DNA from: Leuctra nigra | Lineage: Eukaryota > Arthropoda > Insecta > Plecoptera > Leuctridae | Direction of reading: 5' to 3' | Assembly: GCA_934045905.1 (NCBI GenBank) | Contig: OW203767.1 | Coordinates: forward strand, 24,932,785-24,996,784 | DNA length: 64,000 bases | In this document: positions 365-63,300 of the stretch, piece after piece | Position numbering within the stretch: position 1 is the first letter of the stretch | Layout of the letters: each line of letters begins with the position of its first letter | Translations under genes and position numbers: made by a program | The notes under the pieces: generated by a model | Databases searched by the model: none | Told to the model about the DNA's origin: nothing | The model's input: only the letters and a program-made list of their open reading frames with translations

Positions 365-3300
365 TCACGAATGGCGTTCCATCTTCTCCAGTTGTCCTTC
401 AAACTCCTCTTTGCTTGCGTCTGGATTCTCTCCAATCCATCTCATCATGTCGTCACAGCTTCCTACAAATGCGTACCAGTCTGCATCTCTGTCTTTAGTT
501 ACTGTGTATTCCATTGACGCTTTAGCAGCCACAACATAGTTTTCAAGAGTAGCCCTTGCCGCGATTCTTTGCTCTTCTCCGATTTTACTCTGTTTCGGAT
601 CCAATAACTTGGCAACTATCTCATCGTATTTACGTTCAATGGCATCACATTGGTCCTCGAGCACACGTCTACGAGCTTGCTGGTTGTTATTCAGCCATTT
701 CAATGTCTCATCGCAGAATCTAATCATCTTCTTCCAGTCGTCATTACGAACTTGTTCAAATACAGGTTGATGCAAAGAAGATTTGACTCTGTTTACGAAC
801 GTTGCCAGCCGATGTCGAGCTTCGAATTTTTGTTCATCCCAATCAGGAGCTCTCCTCTTATCCTCAGCTTCTTTCATACGCTGATACTCCCTCAAACTTG
901 ATATTGCTTGCTCATGCTGTCTTTGAAGGTCGTTCAGTTGTCTTTCACACATGTCCTTGCTTTCTCCCGGGTTGTTGAAAAGCCACTCGCATATTTTGTG
1001 GCAGAGTTTGACACATTCGTACCTTTCTATATTCCGCAGCTGATCATAAGCCGGTTGATTCATATCAGTCTTGACAAGAGCTACATATTCCTCCAGCTGA
1101 CGTCTTGCTGTGATTCTTTGTTGCTCCATCTCTCTCATCTGACGTAGTTTCATCTCCTCCTCCTTCTTGTGAAGAAGATCTTGGTACTGATTCAGCCTCT
1201 CTGTTGTATCATGATACTGGCGCTGCAGGAGCTGATAGAGTTCTTCACATGCGTCTTTGCTAGCTTCAGGATTTTTACTCAGCCAATTGTGTATGTTGTT
1301 GCATAAATTAACACAATCTTCCCAGTCCGGATTGCGATGTTGATCTTGAATTTGATCCATCTCAGTTTTGATTGTGATGACACTTTGTCGAAGTTGTTTT
1401 TCAGCTTCAAGTCTTTGTTGTTCCAACTGTTCCATTCGTGTCTCCTCTTTCTCTTGATTCCTCAGACTTTCTATTGTGACTTCGTATTGATGATTCATGT
1501 TCTCATGTTTTACTTCAAAGTCTTCCTTGGATGTATCTTGGTTGTTACGGATCCAATTGAGTGTTTCGTCACATAACTTGTCGAAGTTTTGCCAATCGAC
1601 ATTACGATGTTTGGGAAGAACTTGACTCATTTGAGATTTCATTTCAACAACGTGTTTCTCTAAGCCATGTCTTGCTGTCGTTCTTCCTTTTTCTACTTCT
1701 TCAAATTTAACTTTATTCGCTATATCCTTTTGTACTTGTGCCTCCTGCAATAATAATGCAGCAAGAGTAGAATCATATTTACTTTTCAAAACAGCCAGCT
1801 GATGTTCAAAACTTTCTTTGCTTTCTCGCTGATTGGTACGAAGCCAGTTCAAGGTTGTACCACATTGTGTGATAAACTCTTGCTTTTCTGCACTGTGAAA
1901 TTGAGAATAATCTGGTTTGAACATGTCAGACCTGACGTCCAACACGAAGCTCTGAAGTCGATTTCTTGCTGCATCTCTCCCTTGTTCTACTTCTTGGGCT
2001 CTCTTCCTCTCTTCTTCGGCTCGCTTCTTCTCTTCTTCGCCTCTCTTCCTTTCTTCTTCGGCCCGCTTCTTCTCTTCTCTCTTCGTCCCTTCTTCGGCCA
2101 GCTTCTTCTCTTCTTCCCCTCTCTTCTTCTCTTCTTCCCCTCTCTTCCTCTCTTCTTCGACCCGCTTCTTCTCTTCTTCGGCTCGCTTCTTCTCTTCTTC
2201 TTCTTGCACTCTCTTGATGTGTTCTTGATGAAATCTCAGACTGTATGTTGTGACGTTATACTGCTTTGCCACGTGTTCGTACGTCTTCTCAAACGCTTCT
2301 TTACTCTCCTCTTGGTTATTGCGAATCCATTGCAATGTTTTGTCACACAATGAAACAAACTCTTCACAATCCAAATTACGATGTTGGAAAGAAACCTGGT
2401 TTATTTCAGATTTAACTTCAACAACGTAATTTAGCAGCCGATCTTTTGCTGCCTTTCTTTGTTGCTCCAGTTCTTCACTTATACACCTCTTTGCAGCATC
2501 ATTTTCATCTACTTTAGCCAATTGGTTTAATTTTTCAACTGTAGATTCATATTTACCTTTTATTACAGACTGCTTGTGATCAAATGCTTCTTTGATGCCG
2601 TTCTGATGATCACGAATCCAAGTAAGTGTTTCATCACAATATGAAACAAAATTAGCTCTGTCCAAAGTATCAAGTTGCGAATATAATGGCTGAAACATGG
2701 CGGCTCGAACATCTTTGACATATTTCGCAAGCTTACACCTTGTTGCAACTCTTCTCAGCTCTGATTCTTCTAACAGCTTTGCTGCTTGTTCCTTCTCCAG
2801 TTTAATGTGGGTTTCCTGGATGTTTCGTAGCTTTATGCCTACCTTTACGTACTCGACTTCCATCTGCTTAAGTTTCTCTTCGAAAACGCATTTGTCTGCT
2901 TCTTGGTTGTTTATAATCCATTCCAATGTTTCAGCGCATAATTTGTTAAACTTCTTCCAGACCGGATACCGAAATGTTCCACTCCACTGTTTGTGAGCAG
3001 CGCGAACTTCTTCCACATATTCCTGAAGCTTGGAGCAAACTGCGATTCTTTCCTGTTCATTTATTTTGCTAAGTTGATTCTTGTTCTTTTGTATGCTGGA
3101 TGTTGTAGTTGAATTTTGTCGTTTAATAATATTGTGATGTTCAACATATTCATTCTTACTCGCCCCCTGATTAATTTCTAGCCACTTCAAAGTATCAGCT
3201 AAGAGCTTTACGTATTCATTCCAATCCGAAGTGCGAAATTGTTCTTCAACTTTGTTCATGACAACCTGGACTCCAAGAATATATTTCTTCAACTGGTTTC

Positions 3301-6064
3301 GTGCCGCATCAAGTTCTTCAAGTTCTTTCATCTTGAGCTTCTCCTCTTCCTCCGTTCTGTGAATATGTAACTGGCGCTCCTTCAGTTTCGTCATTGTAAA
3401 GTTGTACAGTTGTTCCAGAATTAACAGTTGTTCTTCGTACTGCTCCTTGCTTTTCATCTGATTGTTCTGGTGCCAAATCAACTCCTCGACACATGCTCTG
3501 ACGAAGTGATCCCAATACGAGTAACCAGGTTGTAAGTTACTCTCCTGCAACATGTCTGACTTCACTTGGTCGATGTATGTTTCCAGCTGATTGCGCGCTT
3601 CGACCCTCTGCTTCTCCATGTCTTCCTTGAGTTTCTTCTCTTGCTGCTTTTTATCCATTTGAAGCTTCTGTCCTTTAATCCTGCCTTTCATAGTTCCATA
3701 CTCTTGTCTCAAATTGGCAAGTTTCTCTTCGAACACGGCTTTGCTCGACTCCCGATTCTTTTCAATCCATTCTTCTGTTTCTTTGCAGCGTTGAACAACA
3801 AGTTTCCAAGTCGTCTGGCTTACGTGACCTTCAACCTGAGACACGGCCTTCTGAACTTCACTGATGAATGTCTCCAGCTGGTCACGTGCTCTGATCCTCT
3901 CTTTCTCTTCTCTGCGTTGCTCTTGTGCTCTGATCCTCTCTTCCTCTTCTCTGTGTTGCTCTTGTGCTCTGATCCTCTCTTCCTCTTCTTTGCGTTGCTC
4001 CTCCTGTAGTTGTGTTTCGTACTTCTGTAGACTCTCTTTTGTAGCGTCAAGCGCGCTCTCCAAGACGGCAAGTTGTGTTTCAATCTCTTCCTGATTAGCA
4101 TTCTGGTTGTCTTTGATCCACAACTCCGTGTTGTCACAAAGTTTCACGAACTCGGTCCAGTCTGAATCGCGCAGTTTCTCTTCGATGTTATGAATATCAC
4201 GTTTTACTTCAACAATACGCGTTGCAAGACGTTTCAGATGTTCTGTTCTCTGGGTTTCCAAGATGTTATCGCCGTCATTTCCTCGTACTCTCCTGACAAG
4301 ACTTTGATGTAGTTGTGTTATTTGCTGAAGTCGGGAAGTAAACTCTTCAATGCATTCCTCTTGGTTTTGCTTAATCCACCACAATGTGCCTTTGGCTTTA
4401 AGATTCAGATCCGTCCAGGCCTCGTCCCGCTGTTTGGTGTCGATGTTGTTCAAGAATGTCAGAGCGCTGTACGCGTGCTTCTCCAGCTCATGACGTGCGT
4501 TGACTCGCGCATGCTCACATCGCTCATCCTCCAGTTGCCGCTCAGCCTCGGCTCTCAGCTCATCCACTTCGGCTTTCAACAGACACTCAGTGACGACATA
4601 CTTGTACCGGATGTCGTCATCACCGCAGTACAATGGTGCTACTTGCAGAATACCGTTCTGGTTGACTTCGAGATCTAATTTAATTAGCCGATTGCCAGAT
4701 GACAATGACGAGATTTCCAAGTCGCAACGTCCAACGCAAGTCTCTGAGTTAACCAAATCATTTCCTCGCTCATAGACTTCAATCTTGATGACATCTTGCT
4801 TGTCATTGATGGGCAGAATCACTCTCTTCGAACATGGATAGACTGTGTTGCGCTCAATGACGTCACCAGCTATCCCTGCAATAGTATACGCGGAAGTGAC
4901 GTCAGAGATGTGTAGAGATGGAGCAGCGCCGCTCAGCACGGCCGCTTGGATCGCTGCGCCGACTGCAACAGCCTCGTCCCGGTTGATGGTCAAGTCGAAC
5001 TCTTTGCCGCCAAACATTTCCTGCAGCAGACTCTGAATCTTGGGGATGCGCGTCGATCCTCCGACAAGAACCACGCGATCGACACTCTTCTTGTCCATCT
5101 TCGCGTCCCGAAGCACCTTCTTCACGTACTCCATGGTCGACGCGAACATGTCTGCGCACAAAGTCTCGAATACTTCTCTGGACACAGTGGTGTGGAAGTC
5201 AACGCCGTCGAGAAGGTCGTCGATCTCAATGCTGGCTGTCGGGAGACTTGACAACGTTCTCTTGGCTGCTTCAACCGCGACCCTCAGTTTCTGCATCGCT
5301 CGAGGATTCGAGAAAATATCTTTCGAGTCTTTGAAGATGAACTCGTGAGCTAAATGTCTGAGGAGCACGTTGTCGAAGTCCTCGCCTCCCAAGTGACTGT
5401 CTCCAGCAGTCGCCTGAACGGTGTATTTAGATCCATCTTCTATAGTTATGATGGATACATCTAAATGTCCACCTCCAAGGTCAAAGATAAGAAGGTTGTG
5501 TTTACCTTGAAGTTGTTTGCCGAGTCCGAAGGCCAGCGCCGCCGCAGTCGGCTCGTTGATGATGCGGACGACGTCGAGGCCCGCTATCGTCCCGGCGTCG
5601 ATGATGGCTTGACGTTGAGAGTCGTTGAAGGAGGCGGGGACTGCAATCACGGCCTCCTTGACGTCCCCGACGAGCGTCTCGGCAATCTGCTTCATCTTCT
5701 GCAGCATCATCGCGCTGATCTCCTCGGCAGTGAAACATCTCTCATTCTTCTTGAACTGGACACTGACCTTCGGTTTGCCTCCAACGTCCACCACAGTGAA
5801 AGGCCAGAGTTTGACGTCGTCCTGAACCTCGGGGTCGTTGAAACGGCGACCGATGAGACGTTTGGTGGCAAAGACGGTGTTCGTCGGCTTCCTCGTCAGC
5901 TGATTCTTCGCCAGGATGCCAAGATGGCGCTCTCTGTCATCGAAAGCCACGTAACTTTGCGTCGTCCTCTTGCCCTGCTCGTTGGGGACGACGGTGACGA
6001 CGCCGTCCTGCCAGACGGCGACGCACGACGTCGAGGTGCCGAGGTCGATGCCGATTACAGACAT
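365..6064 (-). CDS. Hsp70-derived protein with about 14 tandem C-terminal lid (SBD-alpha) repeats
   Basis: Single uninterrupted 1,899-codon frame without introns. Residues 1-385 are a full Hsp70 ATPase domain: IGIDLGTSTS (4-13), catalytic-type Lys68, NEPTAAALAFG (Glu171), DLGGGHLD (195-202) and VGGSTRIPKIQ (334-344). Residues about 388-478 match the substrate-binding beta domain (VIERNTVYP, NQNGILQVAP). From about 520 to the end come some 14 copies of an 85-105 residue unit resembling the Hsp70 lid: ARxxLExYVxxVKSxM, then LCDETLxWIxNNQ, then SKExFExxL. The key Trp recurs near residues 563, 649, 768, 867, 961, 1049, 1150, 1246, 1406, 1505, 1594, 1691, 1789 and 1874. Normal Hsp70s have one lid and 640-660 residues. 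Glu/Lys/Arg-rich helices separate some units, the longest near 1290-1370. The EEVD tail and any signal peptide are absent, so a cytosolic location is inferred. His200 replaces the usual Thr of DLGGGT, and the DLLLLD linker is lost (SLHISDV). Family assignment is secure; function is unknown. Confidence 0.93.
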   Translation of the reverse strand: MSVIGIDLGTSTSCVAVWQDGVVTVVPNEQGKRTTQSYVAFDDRERHLGILAKNQLTRKPTNTVFATKRLIGRRFNDPEVQDDVKLWPFTVVDVGGKPKVSVQFKKNERCFTAEEISAMMLQKMKQIAETLVGDVKEAVIAVPASFNDSQRQAIIDAGTIAGLDVVRIINEPTAAALAFGLGKQLQGKHNLLIFDLGGGHLDVSIITIEDGSKYTVQATAGDSHLGGEDFDNVLLRHLAHEFIFKDSKDIFSNPRAMQKLRVAVEAAKRTLSSLPTASIEIDDLLDGVDFHTTVSREVFETLCADMFASTMEYVKKVLRDAKMDKKSVDRVVLVGGSTRIPKIQSLLQEMFGGKEFDLTINRDEAVAVGAAIQAAVLSGAAPSLHISDVTSAYTIAGIAGDVIERNTVYPCSKRVILPINDKQDVIKIEVYERGNDLVNSETCVGRCDLEISSLSSGNRLIKLDLEVNQNGILQVAPLYCGDDDIRYKYVVTECLLKAEVDELRAEAERQLEDERCEHARVNARHELEKHAYSALTFLNNIDTKQRDEAWTDLNLKAKGTLWWIKQNQEECIEEFTSRLQQITQLHQSLVRRVRGNDGDNILETQRTEHLKRLATRIVEVKRDIHNIEEKLRDSDWTEFVKLCDNTELWIKDNQNANQEEIETQLAVLESALDATKESLQKYETQLQEEQRKEEEERIRAQEQHREEEERIRAQEQRREEKERIRARDQLETFISEVQKAVSQVEGHVSQTTWKLVVQRCKETEEWIEKNRESSKAVFEEKLANLRQEYGTMKGRIKGQKLQMDKKQQEKKLKEDMEKQRVEARNQLETYIDQVKSDMLQESNLQPGYSYWDHFVRACVEELIWHQNNQMKSKEQYEEQLLILEQLYNFTMTKLKERQLHIHRTEEEEKLKMKELEELDAARNQLKKYILGVQVVMNKVEEQFRTSDWNEYVKLLADTLKWLEINQGASKNEYVEHHNIIKRQNSTTTSSIQKNKNQLSKINEQERIAVCSKLQEYVEEVRAAHKQWSGTFRYPVWKKFNKLCAETLEWIINNQEADKCVFEEKLKQMEVEYVKVGIKLRNIQETHIKLEKEQAAKLLEESELRRVATRCKLAKYVKDVRAAMFQPLYSQLDTLDRANFVSYCDETLTWIRDHQNGIKEAFDHKQSVIKGKYESTVEKLNQLAKVDENDAAKRCISEELEQQRKAAKDRLLNYVVEVKSEINQVSFQHRNLDCEEFVSLCDKTLQWIRNNQEESKEAFEKTYEHVAKQYNVTTYSLRFHQEHIKRVQEEEEKKRAEEEKKRVEEERKRGEEEKKRGEEEKKLAEEGTKREEKKRAEEERKRGEEEKKRAEEERKRAQEVEQGRDAARNRLQSFVLDVRSDMFKPDYSQFHSAEKQEFITQCGTTLNWLRTNQRESKESFEHQLAVLKSKYDSTLAALLLQEAQVQKDIANKVKFEEVEKGRTTARHGLEKHVVEMKSQMSQVLPKHRNVDWQNFDKLCDETLNWIRNNQDTSKEDFEVKHENMNHQYEVTIESLRNQEKEETRMEQLEQQRLEAEKQLRQSVITIKTEMDQIQDQHRNPDWEDCVNLCNNIHNWLSKNPEASKDACEELYQLLQRQYHDTTERLNQYQDLLHKKEEEMKLRQMREMEQQRITARRQLEEYVALVKTDMNQPAYDQLRNIERYECVKLCHKICEWLFNNPGESKDMCERQLNDLQRQHEQAISSLREYQRMKEAEDKRRAPDWDEQKFEARHRLATFVNRVKSSLHQPVFEQVRNDDWKKMIRFCDETLKWLNNNQQARRRVLEDQCDAIERKYDEIVAKLLDPKQSKIGEEQRIAARATLENYVVAAKASMEYTVTKDRDADWYAFVGSCDDMMRWIGENPDASKEEFEGQLEKMERHS

Positions 6065-6994
6065 CGTGACGTCACAACGTCACCAGCTCGGTGCTGAACG
6101 ACTTAATTGTGTGACGTATGATACACGTTTACATCGCTACTGAAACTACGGGCAAAGATATTATGAACAACTACGGGTCAAGACTGACGACTATGCTGTC
6201 TCTGTGAGTGATAAGCATGTAATCTTATCTGAATGACACGCGATGATATCACTGCGACAACATCGACTACTTATCGATCCCCTCAAATAAGATAAAAGTA
6301 CTTCTGCTTCGAGGTGATTTCAGGGGAAATAATTAAAATGTGAATGGTTTTATATTGATATTGATTAATGATGTTAATATTGGTGTATATTGATTATTAC
6401 CAGCTTATTACCTAATCTTGATAAATTGTATTTTATTTTATAAAATTTAGGCAAACATTTCAATTCCAATACTGAAATAAAGAACCGACCAGATATATTC
6501 TATTTTTAGCCGATTTTGTTCTTTCTCGTTATGGCATTAGTTGACATTTGAAGTGAAGTAAAACACGAACCAAAAAGTTATTATGCAATTGGCTAATACA
6601 ATGTTTTTCCAGTAAAACTTAATTAATTTTAAATGTATAAATACATATTTTCAAAGATATATTGGTTAGTTATGGTGGTTTTATCATCGTAATAGAACGA
6701 GTACAAAGTTATTGCTACCAGAGTTTTGCAGAGTTATGTTATGTTGCTATCGCTCGAAATAAAGTTATGCCGGTATGTGCATAACGGAATCGGAATATCG
6801 GAATGTCCGGTTTGTGGGAATGTCCATGATCAGTTCAATCCAGAGATTACTTTTGATAAAATTATTAAGTAACAAAATATTGAAATTGCAATCTAAAATT
6901 TCCCATTTCTAATAACATAATTTAATTCTAATTTTGTCAGCATTCTGAAACTCCAAGTATCTTGAATGTCTATACAAATCTATGTGTTAAATAC
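6065..6994. other. Intergenic region upstream of the Hsp70-derived gene
   Basis: No gene is visible. A palindromic CRE-like TGACGTCA lies at 6067-6074, three bases upstream of the start codon and so probably in the 5' leader. I looked for inverted nGAAnnTTCn heat-shock arrays, as inducible Hsp70 genes have, and saw no convincing one. The rest is AT-rich sequence without clear structure. Confidence 0.4.
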
Positions 6995-51313: not shown

Positions 51314-54300
51314 ATGTCGAGATACGGTCAAAGGCCTGAAAATGCCCTTAAGAGGGCAAATGGTGAGTTACAACTTGGGCATTGGTCTCAATATGGTTTC
51401 CTAGGGTTGTTGGCCATTTCAAATATGGAGGGTGGCAGGGTATCAGTTAATCCTAAAAAAGATAATAAAATGTTCCATCAATATGCAGCTCCCTAATTAA
51501 ATAATGTTGATTTCTAGAATTCATCGAGGTTGGTAAGCCCGCTCGTGCGTTGGACACTCTTTACGAAGTCTTTCGCAACAAAAAATGGGCTTACAACTGG
51601 AGCGAGAGCGTCTTGGAGCCGATCATGTTCAAGTACTTGGACTTGTGTGTCGAGCTCAAGAAATCGCACATCGCCAAGGAGGGTCTCTTCCAATACCGGA
51701 ACATGTTCCAATCCGTGAACGTTTCCTCGTTGGAGAATGTCATCCGAGGCTATTTGAGAACGGCTGAAGAACGAACGGAATCGGCTCGGGAGCAGTCGCA
51801 GCAAGCTGTCATCGACATCAACATTGATGACCTTGATATGTTACAAACTCCTGAGAGTATTCTACTTAGGTAAGTACATTTACTAGCTAATTTTTATTTT
51901 TGATTTGCAAGTAGAAAGGTACTACCTACCTACCTACTCTGTTTTTTTTGTGGAAACGAGTAAGACTACCTATACCTATTGATGTTACGTCTAGGTATTG
52001 CCAAGGGTTATGGGAGGTCTGGGTGGCCACATTTGAACAAATTTGTATGTCAAGCCATGCTTATAGGGTTGCCAACTTTACAAGAATTGAATTACGGACA
52101 TTACAGCTCTAAAATTCTCGAGGTAAAAAAGGTCTCATATATATAAGGTGACCATACGTACCGGTTTTACCGGTACAGTACCGTTTTTAATGCTCTTGTC
52201 CCGGTGTCCCGAGAACCTTTGCGAAACGGCTCATTTGTCCCGGTTTTGAAATTGCCGCTTAAAATGTCCCGCCCGGTAGTTCACTCTAACGGCGCTAGAT
52301 GGAACTTTTGTCTACAGCGGTCACATCTAAGATGCGTAAAAGAAGATGCGCACGGATTTCGATATTGTTGAAAGTTAAGATGGCGTGTGTTTAGTTGTCT
52401 ACCAGCCAATAACCAATAACATATATAACCAATAACCAATAACCAGCCAATAACACCAGCCAATAAATGGATAGTGTAGAAAAGCGGCCTTTCAACCTCG
52501 GAATGGCGTGATGCAATCAAAATGACAGAGAATGTTGCACTGGTACGAGTGCTCCATGGCAGAAGCGTGAACGGAAACCGTTGCCGTCGTTGCGGCAGCG
52601 AGATAGAAACCCTTCCACACGTTTTGGGCTTCTGCAAGCATGGTGAATTACTACGAATAACTCGACACCACAGCATAAGGACTGCGATTGCCAATGCGCT
52701 GCGAGTCAAGGGATGGCAAGTGTCTGGAGAGGTTCATGGTGTGGGACTAGACGACAGCAACCGAAGAGTGGACATCTTTGCCATGGATAAATCACAGAAG
52801 GCATACATATTAGACCCTACAGTTCGTTTCGAGTCCCACATAGGGCAAGCGCAAGAGATTGATGACGAGAAGCGCCTTATTTATGAACCAACAATCCCCT
52901 ACTTTAAAGACAAGTATGAGGCAAGAGACATTGAAGTCATTGGTCTCTTCATAGGCGCTAGGGGAACTCTGACTACTTTTTTTAAACAATTTTGTACTAA
53001 GTTTAAGTTAGATAGGAATTTCATGAAATCTATTAGTATATTAGCTTTAAAAGGATCAGTAGCAATTTTAAGGAATCATTTATATAGATAGCCAGAATTC
53101 AACTCAGTAGATTTAAGTTTTCATTAATTATTATTTATTAATACTATATTTGTTGTTTCGTTCATTCTATTCATTACCTACATATTTTCATGATACTTCA
53201 TAGTGCATCTATATATTTACAATAACGTCATTTTCATTTATATTATACTGTGTCCATGTGGCAACCATGTTATCATGGCAGTGTTTTTACAATAAAGTCT
53301 CTCTCTTTAGCCGGTTTGTGTTCCTGTCATTCATCTGTCTGTGATATTATTATTACTGTTAGAACTTTTACTTATGGCTCCTCGGAGGAAGTGCAAATTT
53401 AACCAAGACTTAAAGAAAGAGTTTGTGTTTATGAAAAAGGTAAAAACTGATAATGACCACGAAATAAAGTGCATGGTCTGCGAGACAATACTGTCAATAG
53501 CTCACGGCGGTAGGTCGGACATCAATGACCACATAAAAACTCCATCATCCAACCACCAGATCTAGATTTTTTCACGTTATTTTACCTACTTTCCTGAAAA
53601 TAACTATACTTTTAAAGTGATTTTAAGCCATAGGTAATTGAGTGATGCATTTCAAAAAATTTGCTGCGCAGCATTTTTCTGGGGGGCAGGTCCCCCAGAC
53701 CCCCCTTCGTATCACTCAAAAACTTTGTCCTGGTTTGATTCCTCTCGAATATGGTCACCACTCACCTTACATATATATTGCTATTTGGGGAAAACACCTA
53801 TGAGTAAGAAGCGATCTCGCGTGAGGTAGGGCCCTTCAGAACCCTGCGGGTCCGGGCCACACAGGCCCGGGAAAATGTTGAATTTCGAGAATGCATTTGG
53901 GCCATTTTTATGAGTAGTGGACTGCAATCTTCGGCGATTTATTTGATACTTTTATTTACTAAATGTGGTGTAAGTTTCATATTTTCCTCAATTCCAGACA
54001 TTATGCTGTCCGGAATGAGGTAGGTAATTCCGGCATCCGGACAATGTATCCGGACAAAGTATCCGGATAAAATCCGGACGGTTGGCATTCTCTACAGGCT
54101 TATCAAGCAAGATTGATGGTATTGTGGGCTTTAATGTGTAGGAAATATTGTGCCTTAAATTATATTGTTGAAGGTACAGCCACATTCAATACTTCCTATA
54201 CCGGTTTTCCATATATCAACATGGGGATTTGGCCGGCTTCTTTTGAATGTGACCCTACCTAGACATAGCAAGGAAAAAAATTAACGCAGAAAATATCAAG

Positions 54301-60300: not shown

Positions 60301-63300
60301 CCTCTAGTCTTATAATAAGAAATTACATGAATTAGCAACCCTACAATGTATAGATGATGTATGATTAATGTAAATATTTCTATTCATTTTGTGATGGTCG
60401 AATAATAATTTTATGACCTAATAGTACATAGGTGAACATTTGCTGAACGTGACTCGAACTCGAAAAACTCGATTCATCTCACTGACTCGACTCGAACTCG
60501 ACTCGACCTTAAAATATCAAACTCGCACAGCCCTAGTAATTACTGAAAAGATAAATATGAGGGTTGGATGATGATGATGATTGTGTGAATAGGAGGAAGT
60601 GGCATCTGGAAAGTGGGAAACGGCCATAGTTGCTATACCTAGATAACCAACTTAATAATAAAGAGATAAATATGAACAGTTGATAGCTAGTGAACGCATG
60701 ACAACGTTCCCCCGATGTCCGCAGGTGCGCGGCCAGCTGGTGAACATGGCGACCGTCCTGCACCGCGCGATGGCCACCATCAACCCGACGAAGAAGCGGG
60801 TGGAGCGCGAGAAGTTGCGCGCGCAGATGGTGCAGCACTACCACGAGACAAAGGTGCGCGAACACCAGCGCATCCTCGCGCGTCACAAGATCATCGAGGA
60901 CCGCAAGGAGTACCTCGAGAAGTGAGTGCCGTTCGGTGTCGCAGATAATAGCAGTCAAACAGAAAGTTTAAAATTTCATTAACATTAATTATTACATCAT
61001 TGGCATAAGTACTTATTTATTTGTACTCAAAGACAGCTCAATATCCAGCTGACCTATTATGAGTATTTTAAAATTTTCTAACAATGTCCCAGTATAAACA
61101 AACCTATTTTGTTATGGTGTATTACAGGGCTGCCGTTTTTACGGATATTATCCGTTTTTACGGATTAATGAGTACAAAAACGGACACGCGGATTTGTTGA
61201 CACATTAACGGATATTGGTGATTCATGGTTGAACGACTTTTTCTCTGTTGAAGGAGATAATATTTCAAATTTATTACGAAAATGTATAGTTTGACAAGTT
61301 ATTTTCGTTTCCTGTCCAACAATTTTCAGTGCAGGGATTGTTTCAAAACATCCTTTTGTGTAAGTAGGCTAGCTATACTAGGGTGAATGGTTGCGAGTGA
61401 TTGGAGAGGGAGGAGGGGGGGTGGGGGAAACTAGTCGACCTTGAGCAATGCCTTGAGAGACTAGGGGCGCATCTGTCTCAGGTCTGAGGCATCCACTTGT
61501 TAGTTGTTTGCAGCTGGTCGTGGGTTAATGACCTGATTAGTGATTGCATCCCTCAGTTTTGCGTGTGCTTATAGTTTTGCAGTTTCATAATGCTCATTAT
61601 GAATATTGTGTTGGAAACGGGAGAAAAATATTTATAATTAAATTAATTATGAATTCAAAATTACAATTCCATCCACAGCTGTCAGTCCAGAACCCAACCC
61701 CCTCCTCTCATGTCCCATGTTGCGTGAGGAATTCAATAGCTTATCTGTCAAGTGGCCCACTTGATGCTTGAAATATGGGAGTTTTACATCATTTTAAAGG
61801 TTTTTAATGGGCATACGGATTTTTACGGATTTTTCATGCTTTTTAAAAGGATATTAATTTGTATATGGCGGCAGCCCTGGTGTATTATAAAGTTTACCCT
61901 TTTTGAAAGCCTTACTTTTCTTGGTTTTCTGAACAATATTTTGCATATCTTCAATTTCTTCACTTGAAATATAAATAATAAATATTCATCCACACTTCCC
62001 TGCATAAGTTGCGTTCTTGCTTGATAGCAAGCATCATTTTTAGAAGTGTTGAGGACATCTTGATGAACAACAGCCATGTTGATAGTTCAAACAAGTCATT
62101 TGTAATTATTTACTTGGGATTAATTGGCTCATCACTTGTTTAAGCACGTGATTTGAAGGGTCTCGTAATCAATTACATGTACACTTCTGTTTTGATTGGA
62201 CCCACTGTTTGTGCACGGACTGACATTGTTTGTCGCGCAGGATGAACACCGTGCGCGAGGAGGAGGAGCAGAAGCGACAGGAAGAGATCGCGCGCCAGCA
62301 GCAGATCGCCGAGCTCAAGCGGCTGGAGATGGAGCGTGAGGAGCGCGAACGCAAGCGCCACGAGAACGAGATCCAGCAGATCAAGGACAGACACCTCAAG
62401 GAGAAGATGCAGCAGATCTCGCTCACGTCGCACGGCCAGAAGATCCTCAAGAAGATGGACGAGGAGGTGAGTCTTGAACGTTATGTCGAGAATTCAATTT
62501 CGATTATAATCAAGTTGAGCCCAAATACCAGTAAATTCTTGCCTCATGTTTACATTTCATAATAAGTTTACACCCAAAGGAGCATCAATTGATAAGAAGG
62601 AAGTTCCGAACAAATTTACATATGGTTTGGTTATACATCTCGCCAATCCATATCCAATCTATCATCTACCTACATGTTTTACACATGTTTTGGTAAAATG
62701 TATACAGTACAAGGGGACTGTGTACTGTGAGCTTGTGTGAATCTTGAGTTACTTGGACGCAAATGTACTGTTGAGACGCATGCACGCAAGTGCAATGAGA
62801 CATGGTGACAGTATCGTCACTGGTGGTATGACAGTTCGTTGTGATCATTCTCTACCTTCATTACATTCTCCTCGGAGATCTTTAACCCTCATCAGTGCGT
62901 TGTGTCTAATGTCCGTCCGTTCGACCGGGTAGCTCAGTTGGTAGAACTCTCGCCCGGCAAGTGAGAGGTCCCGGGTTTGAGCCCCGGTTCAGTCGGATAT
63001 TTTCACAACACGCATCCCTTCCTTAAATGTACTGTGATTCCGCTGCGTAATGACGACTTATTCCGCTTTCGCCTCTGCTCCAGGACATCAAGAAGCTTGA
63101 CGCCGAGCAGATCGCGGCCAAGGAAGCGGAGGAGCTGCTGAAGGAGCGGCGCGAGCTGCAGCAGAAGCTCAAGTCCCAGGAGAAGAAGGTGGACTACTTC
63201 GAGCGGGCCAAGCGCATTGAGGAGATCCCGCTGTTCGAGCGCTCGTTCGAGGAGAAGGCGGTGGCGGACCGCAAGAGCGGCGAGCTGCAGGAGGCGGAGC

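What the first reader, a model, noticed from the sequence alone, without database searches (positions are those of the whole stretch)
365..6064. An Hsp70 whose lid domain is repeated about 14 times
The C-terminal 1,380 residues are not generic coiled coil. Each 85-105 residue unit aligns with the helical lid of Hsp70: A-R-x-x-L-E-x-Y-V-x-x-V-K-S, then L-C-D-E-T-L-x-W-I-x-N-N-Q-x-x-S-K-E-x-F-E. Canonical lids show AKNALESY...KCQEVISWLDANT..EKDEFE at the same spacing. The frame stays open for 5.7 kb, so selection has kept it. An Hsp70 engine with a chain of lids could act as a multivalent holdase, a scaffold or an elongated filament. I know of no described protein of this form.
Basis: partly seen in the sequence, partly recalled or inferred. 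Interest (0 to 1): 0.92.

Follow-up and report, generated by a model that had tools for sequence, protein, structure and literature searches.

The report
Hsp70 with fourteen tandem lid domains
A gene of an unnamed, probably insect, animal joins the ATP-binding head of a heat-shock chaperone to a chain of fourteen copies of that chaperone's small helical lid, which are predicted to link end to end into a long rod; no comparable protein turned up in the searches made here.

Summary
Window 365-6064 (-) is one open frame of 1,899 codons: an Hsp70 ATPase domain, a strongly diverged beta substrate domain, and 14 lid units (the native one plus 13), without EEVD. A profile of units 2-14 alone retrieves Hsp70 lids from the PDB (best E 1.3e-12); no spectrin or myosin is among its 29 hits. 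An independent lid profile finds the 14 units in order. AlphaFold2 models three consecutive units as lid bundles joined by unbroken helices, pLDDT 92.5, pTM 0.53. Units average 29% identity and differ most at third codon positions, without a stop: an old array kept by selection. Among ordinary-length Hsp70s the best hits are insect inducible ones. Linker, beta domain and catalytic Thr204 are changed, so a normal refolding cycle is unlikely. Best reading: an Hsp70 turned into a long spectrin-like rod with a nucleotide-binding head; the function is inferred. Two environmental Hsp70s carry two clear lids and a weaker third in tandem, a small precedent. Species, transcript and orthologue are not established; the own-genome search did not complete (15 tries).

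The parts
365..6064 (-). whole intronless reading frame, 1,899 aa
   Evidence: upstream in-frame stop at 6080-6082 and AATAAA at 248-253 and 198-203
4919..6064 (-). Hsp70 nucleotide-binding domain, about residues 1-382; Thr204 to His, Tyr149 to Ser, Thr14 to Ser (human numbering)
   Evidence: best hits among the fetched proteins 62-65% identical
4514..4918 (-). linker and strongly diverged beta substrate domain, residues 383-517, including the start of the helix leading into lid 1
   Evidence: 21 of 69 conserved positions kept; low model confidence
4250..4513 (-). lid unit 1 (native position), residues 518-605
3899..4249 (-). lid unit 2, residues 606-722, with charged linker
3886..4000 (-). 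39-bp DNA tandem repeat, 2.9 copies, 94% matches, in the linker between units 2 and 3
3608..3898 (-). lid unit 3, residues 723-819
3314..3607 (-). lid unit 4, residues 820-917
3050..3313 (-). lid unit 5, residues 918-1005
2753..3049 (-). lid unit 6, residues 1006-1104
2459..2752 (-). lid unit 7, residues 1105-1202
2204..2458 (-). lid unit 8, residues 1203-1287
1979..2203 (-). long Glu/Lys/Arg-rich segment, likely a single alpha helix, residues 1288-1362, on 42- and 21-bp DNA repeats
1685..1978 (-). lid unit 9, residues 1363-1460
1415..1684 (-). lid unit 10, residues 1461-1550
1118..1414 (-). lid unit 11, residues 1551-1649 (weakest, 499 of 500 shuffles beaten)
830..1117 (-). lid unit 12, residues 1650-1745
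569..829 (-). lid unit 13, residues 1746-1832 (best match to the lid profile)
368..568 (-). lid unit 14, residues 1833-1899, C-terminus without EEVD

Best explanation
The gene is a diverged, intronless relative of the inducible cytosolic insect Hsp70s whose C-terminal lid bundle has been copied in tandem to 14 units (make-up shown; kinship from best hits). The last helix of one lid runs unbroken into the first long helix of the next, so the tail should be a stiff helical rod, spectrin-like in plan but made of another domain (predicted for units 9-11). At about 6-7 nm per unit plus a charged single helix the rod would be roughly 90-100 nm long (inferred). Linker, beta domain and Thr204 are altered, so the protein probably no longer refolds clients; the head would be a nucleotide-dependent docking point, for example for J-proteins and exchange factors, and the rod a spacer or many-site scaffold (inferred).
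For: Lid identity. Rod: helices 54-120 and 151-208 span neighbouring units, pLDDT 92.5. Protein-level selection. Uneven loss of conserved positions, 194/253 in the head against 21/69 in linker plus beta domain. Charged, repeat-built linkers. Kin.
Against: pTM 0.53 leaves the angles between units open, and the alignment had only 4 rows from the same protein. The model of residues 1-722 is weak, pLDDT 71.3, and has no canonical Hsp70 run as control. No transcript, orthologue, partner or localisation is known. Thr204 change need not kill the ATPase: the title of PDB entry 1ats calls Thr204 not essential (listing), against the T204A data of PMC9438496 (passages) and the PMC7294093 table.
Confidence: 0.5

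Rival explanations
1. Multivalent holdase: lids, or lids unfolded by stress, bind clients or co-chaperones so that one chain holds many. The cysteine aligned with human Cys574 is kept in 12 of 14 units; glutathionylation of Cys574 and Cys603 unfolds the human lid, so the array could be a redox-triggered holdase.
For: Cys column 12 of 14 units, aligned with human Cys574; PMC7294093 abstract and passages.
Against: The same cysteine is in 108 of 111 ordinary-length Hsp70s, so it may simply be a core residue; the human effect involves two cysteines; PMC7294093 has the unfolded lid bind the beta domain's own pocket, which is diverged here. The modelled lids look stably folded.
Confidence: 0.2
2. 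A still working Hsp70 whose extra lids merely tune the ATPase cycle or bind a co-chaperone many times.
For: Head keeps 194 of 253 conserved positions, Lys71, Glu175, Asp199 and Asp206. PMC3315512 (abstract and passages): the lid sets the rate-limiting step in worm Hsc70.
Against: 21 of 69 conserved positions in linker plus beta domain, PLSL deletion, Thr204 to His, no EEVD; one lid already covers the one pocket.
Confidence: 0.2
3. Artefact or decaying gene: assembly chimera, or a frame no longer used.
For: No orthologue or transcript seen; third-position GC falls from about 0.8 at the 5' end to about 0.3-0.5 in much of the lid region.
Against: Units 17-49% identical, so neither assembly nor recent slippage made the array. 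No stop, while 0 of 200 neutral runs stayed open at each of four divergences, with at least 9 stops at 0.1 substitutions per site. GC3 declines unevenly along the gene with no clear step at a domain border. Upstream stop and poly-A signals in place.
Confidence: 0.1

Closest known systems
Inducible cytosolic insect Hsp70 (Hsp68-like, Hsp70 A1-like)
   Same: Domain order head, beta domain, lid; best ordinary-length hits, mostly 47-50% over the overlap (120 of 7,974 hits listed); intronless frame here, as is usual for inducible Hsp70 (recalled)
   Different: 14 lids instead of one, diverged linker and beta domain, Thr204 to His, no EEVD
Environmental Hsp70s P0030 and P0033 (unnamed sources)
   Same: Hsp70 with lids in tandem: two in each by the independent profile, a weaker third (E 4.6e-4 and 1.2e-4) with a profile that includes their own first two lids
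   Different: Two or three lids; sources unnamed, and no match to them in the viral contigs searched
Hsp110/Grp170 (atypical Hsp70s)
   Different: Beta domain shortened rather than carrying a long insertion; many lids
Spectrin-repeat proteins
   Same: Three-helix units whose last helix runs on into the next unit (spectrin plan recalled)
Isolated Hsp70 lid domains (PDB 3lof, 1ud0, 2lmg, 5z8q)
   Same: Same fold and sequence family; they show that a lid can be solved alone
   Different: Single domains, not chains

Membership tests
Hsp70 superfamily | Actin-like Hsp70 nucleotide-binding domain with Lys71, Glu175, Asp199 | tested here: met
   PF00012 E 1.6e-165; residues kept
Hsp70 superfamily | Helical lid (SBD-alpha) | tested here: met
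   14 units
canonical Hsp70 chaperone | Hydrophobic interdomain linker and intact beta strand 1 | tested here: not met
   VLLVDV of the reference aligns with LHISDV, PLSL missing
canonical Hsp70 chaperone | Catalytic Thr204 | tested here: not met
   His; conserved in all 111 rows to two decimals
canonical Hsp70 chaperone | Working peptide-binding beta domain | tested here: inconclusive
   21 of 69 conserved positions in linker plus beta domain kept; the weak model decides nothing
canonical cytosolic Hsp70 | C-terminal EEVD | tested here: not met
   ends EKMERHS
canonical Hsp70 chaperone | ATP-driven client refolding with J-proteins | not testable with these tools
   needs purified protein
Hsp110/Grp170 | Long insertion in the beta domain or before the lid (recalled) | tested here: not met
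   beta domain shorter than the reference, no insertion
spectrin repeats | Spectrin-repeat sequence signature | tested here: not met
   no spectrin among 29 PDB profile hits; no Pfam spectrin for the whole protein or for the 10 units tested, at E up to 1
spectrin repeats | Three-helix repeats joined by continuous helices | tested here: inconclusive
   [not shown]

The most novel reading that the evidence does not exclude
A chaperone has been remade into a cytoskeleton-like element: an ATP-gated Hsp70 head on a spectrin-like rod about 0.1 micrometre long, built from lids and independent of spectrin, in which the repeated buried cysteine lets oxidative stress soften or unfold the lids one by one, so that the rod is a redox-responsive tether or holdase.
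Probability: 0.2. Interest if true: 0.92.

Novelty: new variant of a known kind. Interest (0 to 1): 0.75.

Why it matters
Hsp70 is among the most conserved proteins and its domain order is rarely altered (recalled). An old array of 14 lids would show that the lid can leave its gating role and become a building block. It gives a direct test of what a lid does by itself, a second evolutionary route to a spectrin-like rod, and a natural helical repeat for protein design.

Tried and rejected
Generic coiled coil or spectrin: rejected by the unit profile against PDB and by coiled-coil windows of P0026 and P0034 (74 of 78 windows were reported, best 6.8 bits, against 13.5-38.5 for the units). Assembly chimera: no support. 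Heat-shock elements: the GAANNTTCNNGAA pattern with up to one mismatch has no match between 6065 and 13,798, and its 34 hits in the window are not above chance (mean 28; 18 of 100 shuffles reach 34). Other lid or Hsp70 copies in the window: none outside the frame by tblastn at E 1e-3 and a lid HMM on six-frame ORFs at E 0.01.

Trees did not place the protein. One search was spoiled by a wrongly cut row (P0017); the query branch (4.36) is far too long to trust; only identities are used. One search used 6 of 13 rows because rows of one name collapsed; one search replaces it. Alignment A2 matched shared units to themselves and was dropped for A4. Proteins with two or more lids far apart (P0001, P0004, P0009, P0011, P0025, P0064, P0067, P0081) are not counted as tandem; by the rule of under 150 residues between lids, 3 of the 181 fetched proteins qualify, P0007, P0030 and P0033, and P0007 also carries a second full Hsp70 part and may be a gene-model fusion. 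The model of residues 1-722 was too weak to judge the beta domain; its fold search returned Hsp70 structures. In the second-look fold list a missing family proves nothing.

Limits of the protein searches: candidates come by shared 5-residue words and length (1,044-3,323 residues; 495-1,575), about 8,000 were scored each time, and one search lists the best 120 of 7,974. By total bits six proteins of 823-1,506 residues, several of them with repeated or fused Hsp70 parts, rank above the insect Hsp70s. In one search (lid region alone) none of 7,981 candidates scored E up to 1; charged linker words may have crowded out distant relatives. Scans of viral contigs and prokaryote genomes gave no relative. 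Paper searches: 10; none lists a tandem-lid Hsp70; the library lacks most subscription journals. Papers opened: PMC12978162, PMC3696110, PMC3315512, PMC9438496, PMC9275713, PMC7294093, in each case passages found by terms (for PMC3315512 and PMC7294093 these included abstract text); the rest seen in listings.

Full report
WHAT IS THERE. Window 365-6064 on the minus strand is one open frame of 1,899 aa. An in-frame stop lies 6 codons before the ATG, and two AATAAA signals lie within 170 bases after the stop. Residues 3-592 match Pfam Hsp70 at E 1.6e-165. The rest holds thirteen further lid units, so that with the lid in the usual place there are 14.

HOW THE UNITS JOIN. In the model, helix 54-120 (67 residues) runs from the last helix of unit 9 into the first helix of unit 10, and helix 151-208 does the same for the next pair. 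That is the plan of spectrin-type rods (recalled). With 0.15 nm rise per helical residue and about 19 residues of return helix, each unit would advance about 6-7 nm; fourteen units plus the charged helix after unit 8 would give roughly 90-100 nm (inference; pTM 0.53 leaves the angles open). The linkers sit on DNA repeats: 39 bp, 2.9 copies, 94% between units 2 and 3; 42 and 21 bp in the long charged linker. They are therefore likely to vary in length (inference).

AGE AND SELECTION. Units share 17-49% identity, mean 29% over 91 pairs, while their mean identity to 63 ordinary lids is 21-30%. Relative to random, mismatches between units at codon positions 1, 2 and 3 are 0.70, 0.63 and 0.83. Under neutral drift the lid region would gather on average 21 stops at 0.1 substitutions per site and 61 at 0.6; 0 of 200 runs stayed open at each of four levels. 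So the array is not an assembly artefact and has been kept as protein. Leu (column 10) and Trp (column 47) are invariant in all 14 units, Asn 51 is kept in 13 and Cys 41 in 12. That cysteine aligns with human Cys574. It is also in 108 of 111 ordinary-length Hsp70s and 61 of 63 by a motif count, so it is inherited, not new; the native-position lid of this protein has lost it.

THE HEAD. In an alignment with 111 Hsp70s of 615-680 residues (those that carry a name there are insects, as far as I read the list; many carry none), 343 positions are at least 97% conserved. The protein keeps 194 of 253 in the ATPase domain, 21 of 69 in linker plus beta domain and 7 of 21 in first lid and tail. Lys71, Glu175, Asp199 and Asp206 are kept; Thr204 is His, Tyr149 is Ser, Thr14 is Ser (human numbering by a constant offset). 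PMC9438496 (passages) reports for T204A lower kcat and higher Km, no stimulation by DnaJB1 but recovery by BAG1, and for Y149A a higher kcat. A table in PMC7294093 calls T204A a mutant that binds but does not hydrolyse ATP. The title of PDB 1ats says Thr204 is not essential for hydrolysis (listing). None of these tested His. So the ATPase is probably altered, not certainly lost. PMC3696110 (passages) ties the leucine-rich linker to oligomer formation; that motif is weakened here. PMC3315512 (abstract and passages) reports that lid truncation leaves ATP hydrolysis and cofactor binding but ends refolding.

ORIGIN. Among ordinary-length proteins the best hits are insect Hsp70s (beetles, butterflies, locusts, biting midges and others) and unnamed sequences, mostly 47-50% over the overlap; six longer proteins, several with repeated or fused Hsp70 parts, rank above them by total bits. 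The best 15 heads among the 181 fetched proteins are 62-65% identical. The species is unknown. Other frames in the window include RCL1 and eIF3a by Pfam, 3 of 8 frames tested having a hit. Third-position GC falls from about 0.8 to about 0.3-0.5 along the gene, unevenly and without a clear step.

KNOWN OR NEW. Protein searches found no relative with a comparable array, within the limits stated under Tried and rejected. Two environmental Hsp70s, P0030 and P0033, carry two lids in tandem by the independent profile and a weaker third, E 4.6e-4 and 1.2e-4, by a profile that includes their own first two lids. Ten paper searches list no tandem-lid Hsp70. I call it a new variant of a known kind: an Hsp70-family protein by head and lid, not a canonical Hsp70 chaperone by linker, catalytic Thr and C-terminus, and spectrin-like in plan only.

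MOST LIKELY WORKING. Shown: domain make-up, number and identity of lids, protein-level constraint. Predicted: lid bundles joined by unbroken helices, for units 9-11. Inferred: a long rod with a nucleotide-binding head that positions or tethers partners. The redox reading rests on one inherited buried cysteine and on PMC7294093 (abstract and passages), and is offered as the bold case only.

Noticed in passing
window 6210-6275: Three GATAAG motifs (6210, 6224, 6270) within about 65 bases, 150-210 bases upstream of the ATG, the densest spot among 21 in the window; about 2e-6 per 70-bp stretch by Poisson, times some 900 stretches. The motif was picked after looking. GATA factors drive gut, fat-body and blood-cell genes in insects (recalled).
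   Followed up: partly
[not shown]
   Followed up: no
P0030 and P0033 (environmental, unnamed): Hsp70s of 1,159 and 1,077 aa with two clear lids and a weaker third in tandem; no relative in the viral contigs searched.
   Followed up: partly
P0026 (Orchesella cincta) and P0034 (environmental): Hsp70 part at the C-terminal end of a long protein; P0034 also carries PF02263, a guanylate-binding GTPase domain (name recalled).
   Followed up: no
P0018 and P0021: Hsp70-like proteins with PF05203 (P0021 also PF05204 and PF14528), which are intein or homing-endonuclease families (names recalled): Hsp70 inteins.
   Followed up: no
window 52522-53091 (+): 189-aa frame resembling the C-terminal end of an R2-type retrotransposon protein (recalled; no Pfam hit).
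   Followed up: no
window 62922-62996 (+): tRNA-Ala-like match with anticodon GGC, 40.9 bits in Rfam; unusual for an animal (recalled), perhaps a pseudogene or the head of a SINE.
   Followed up: no
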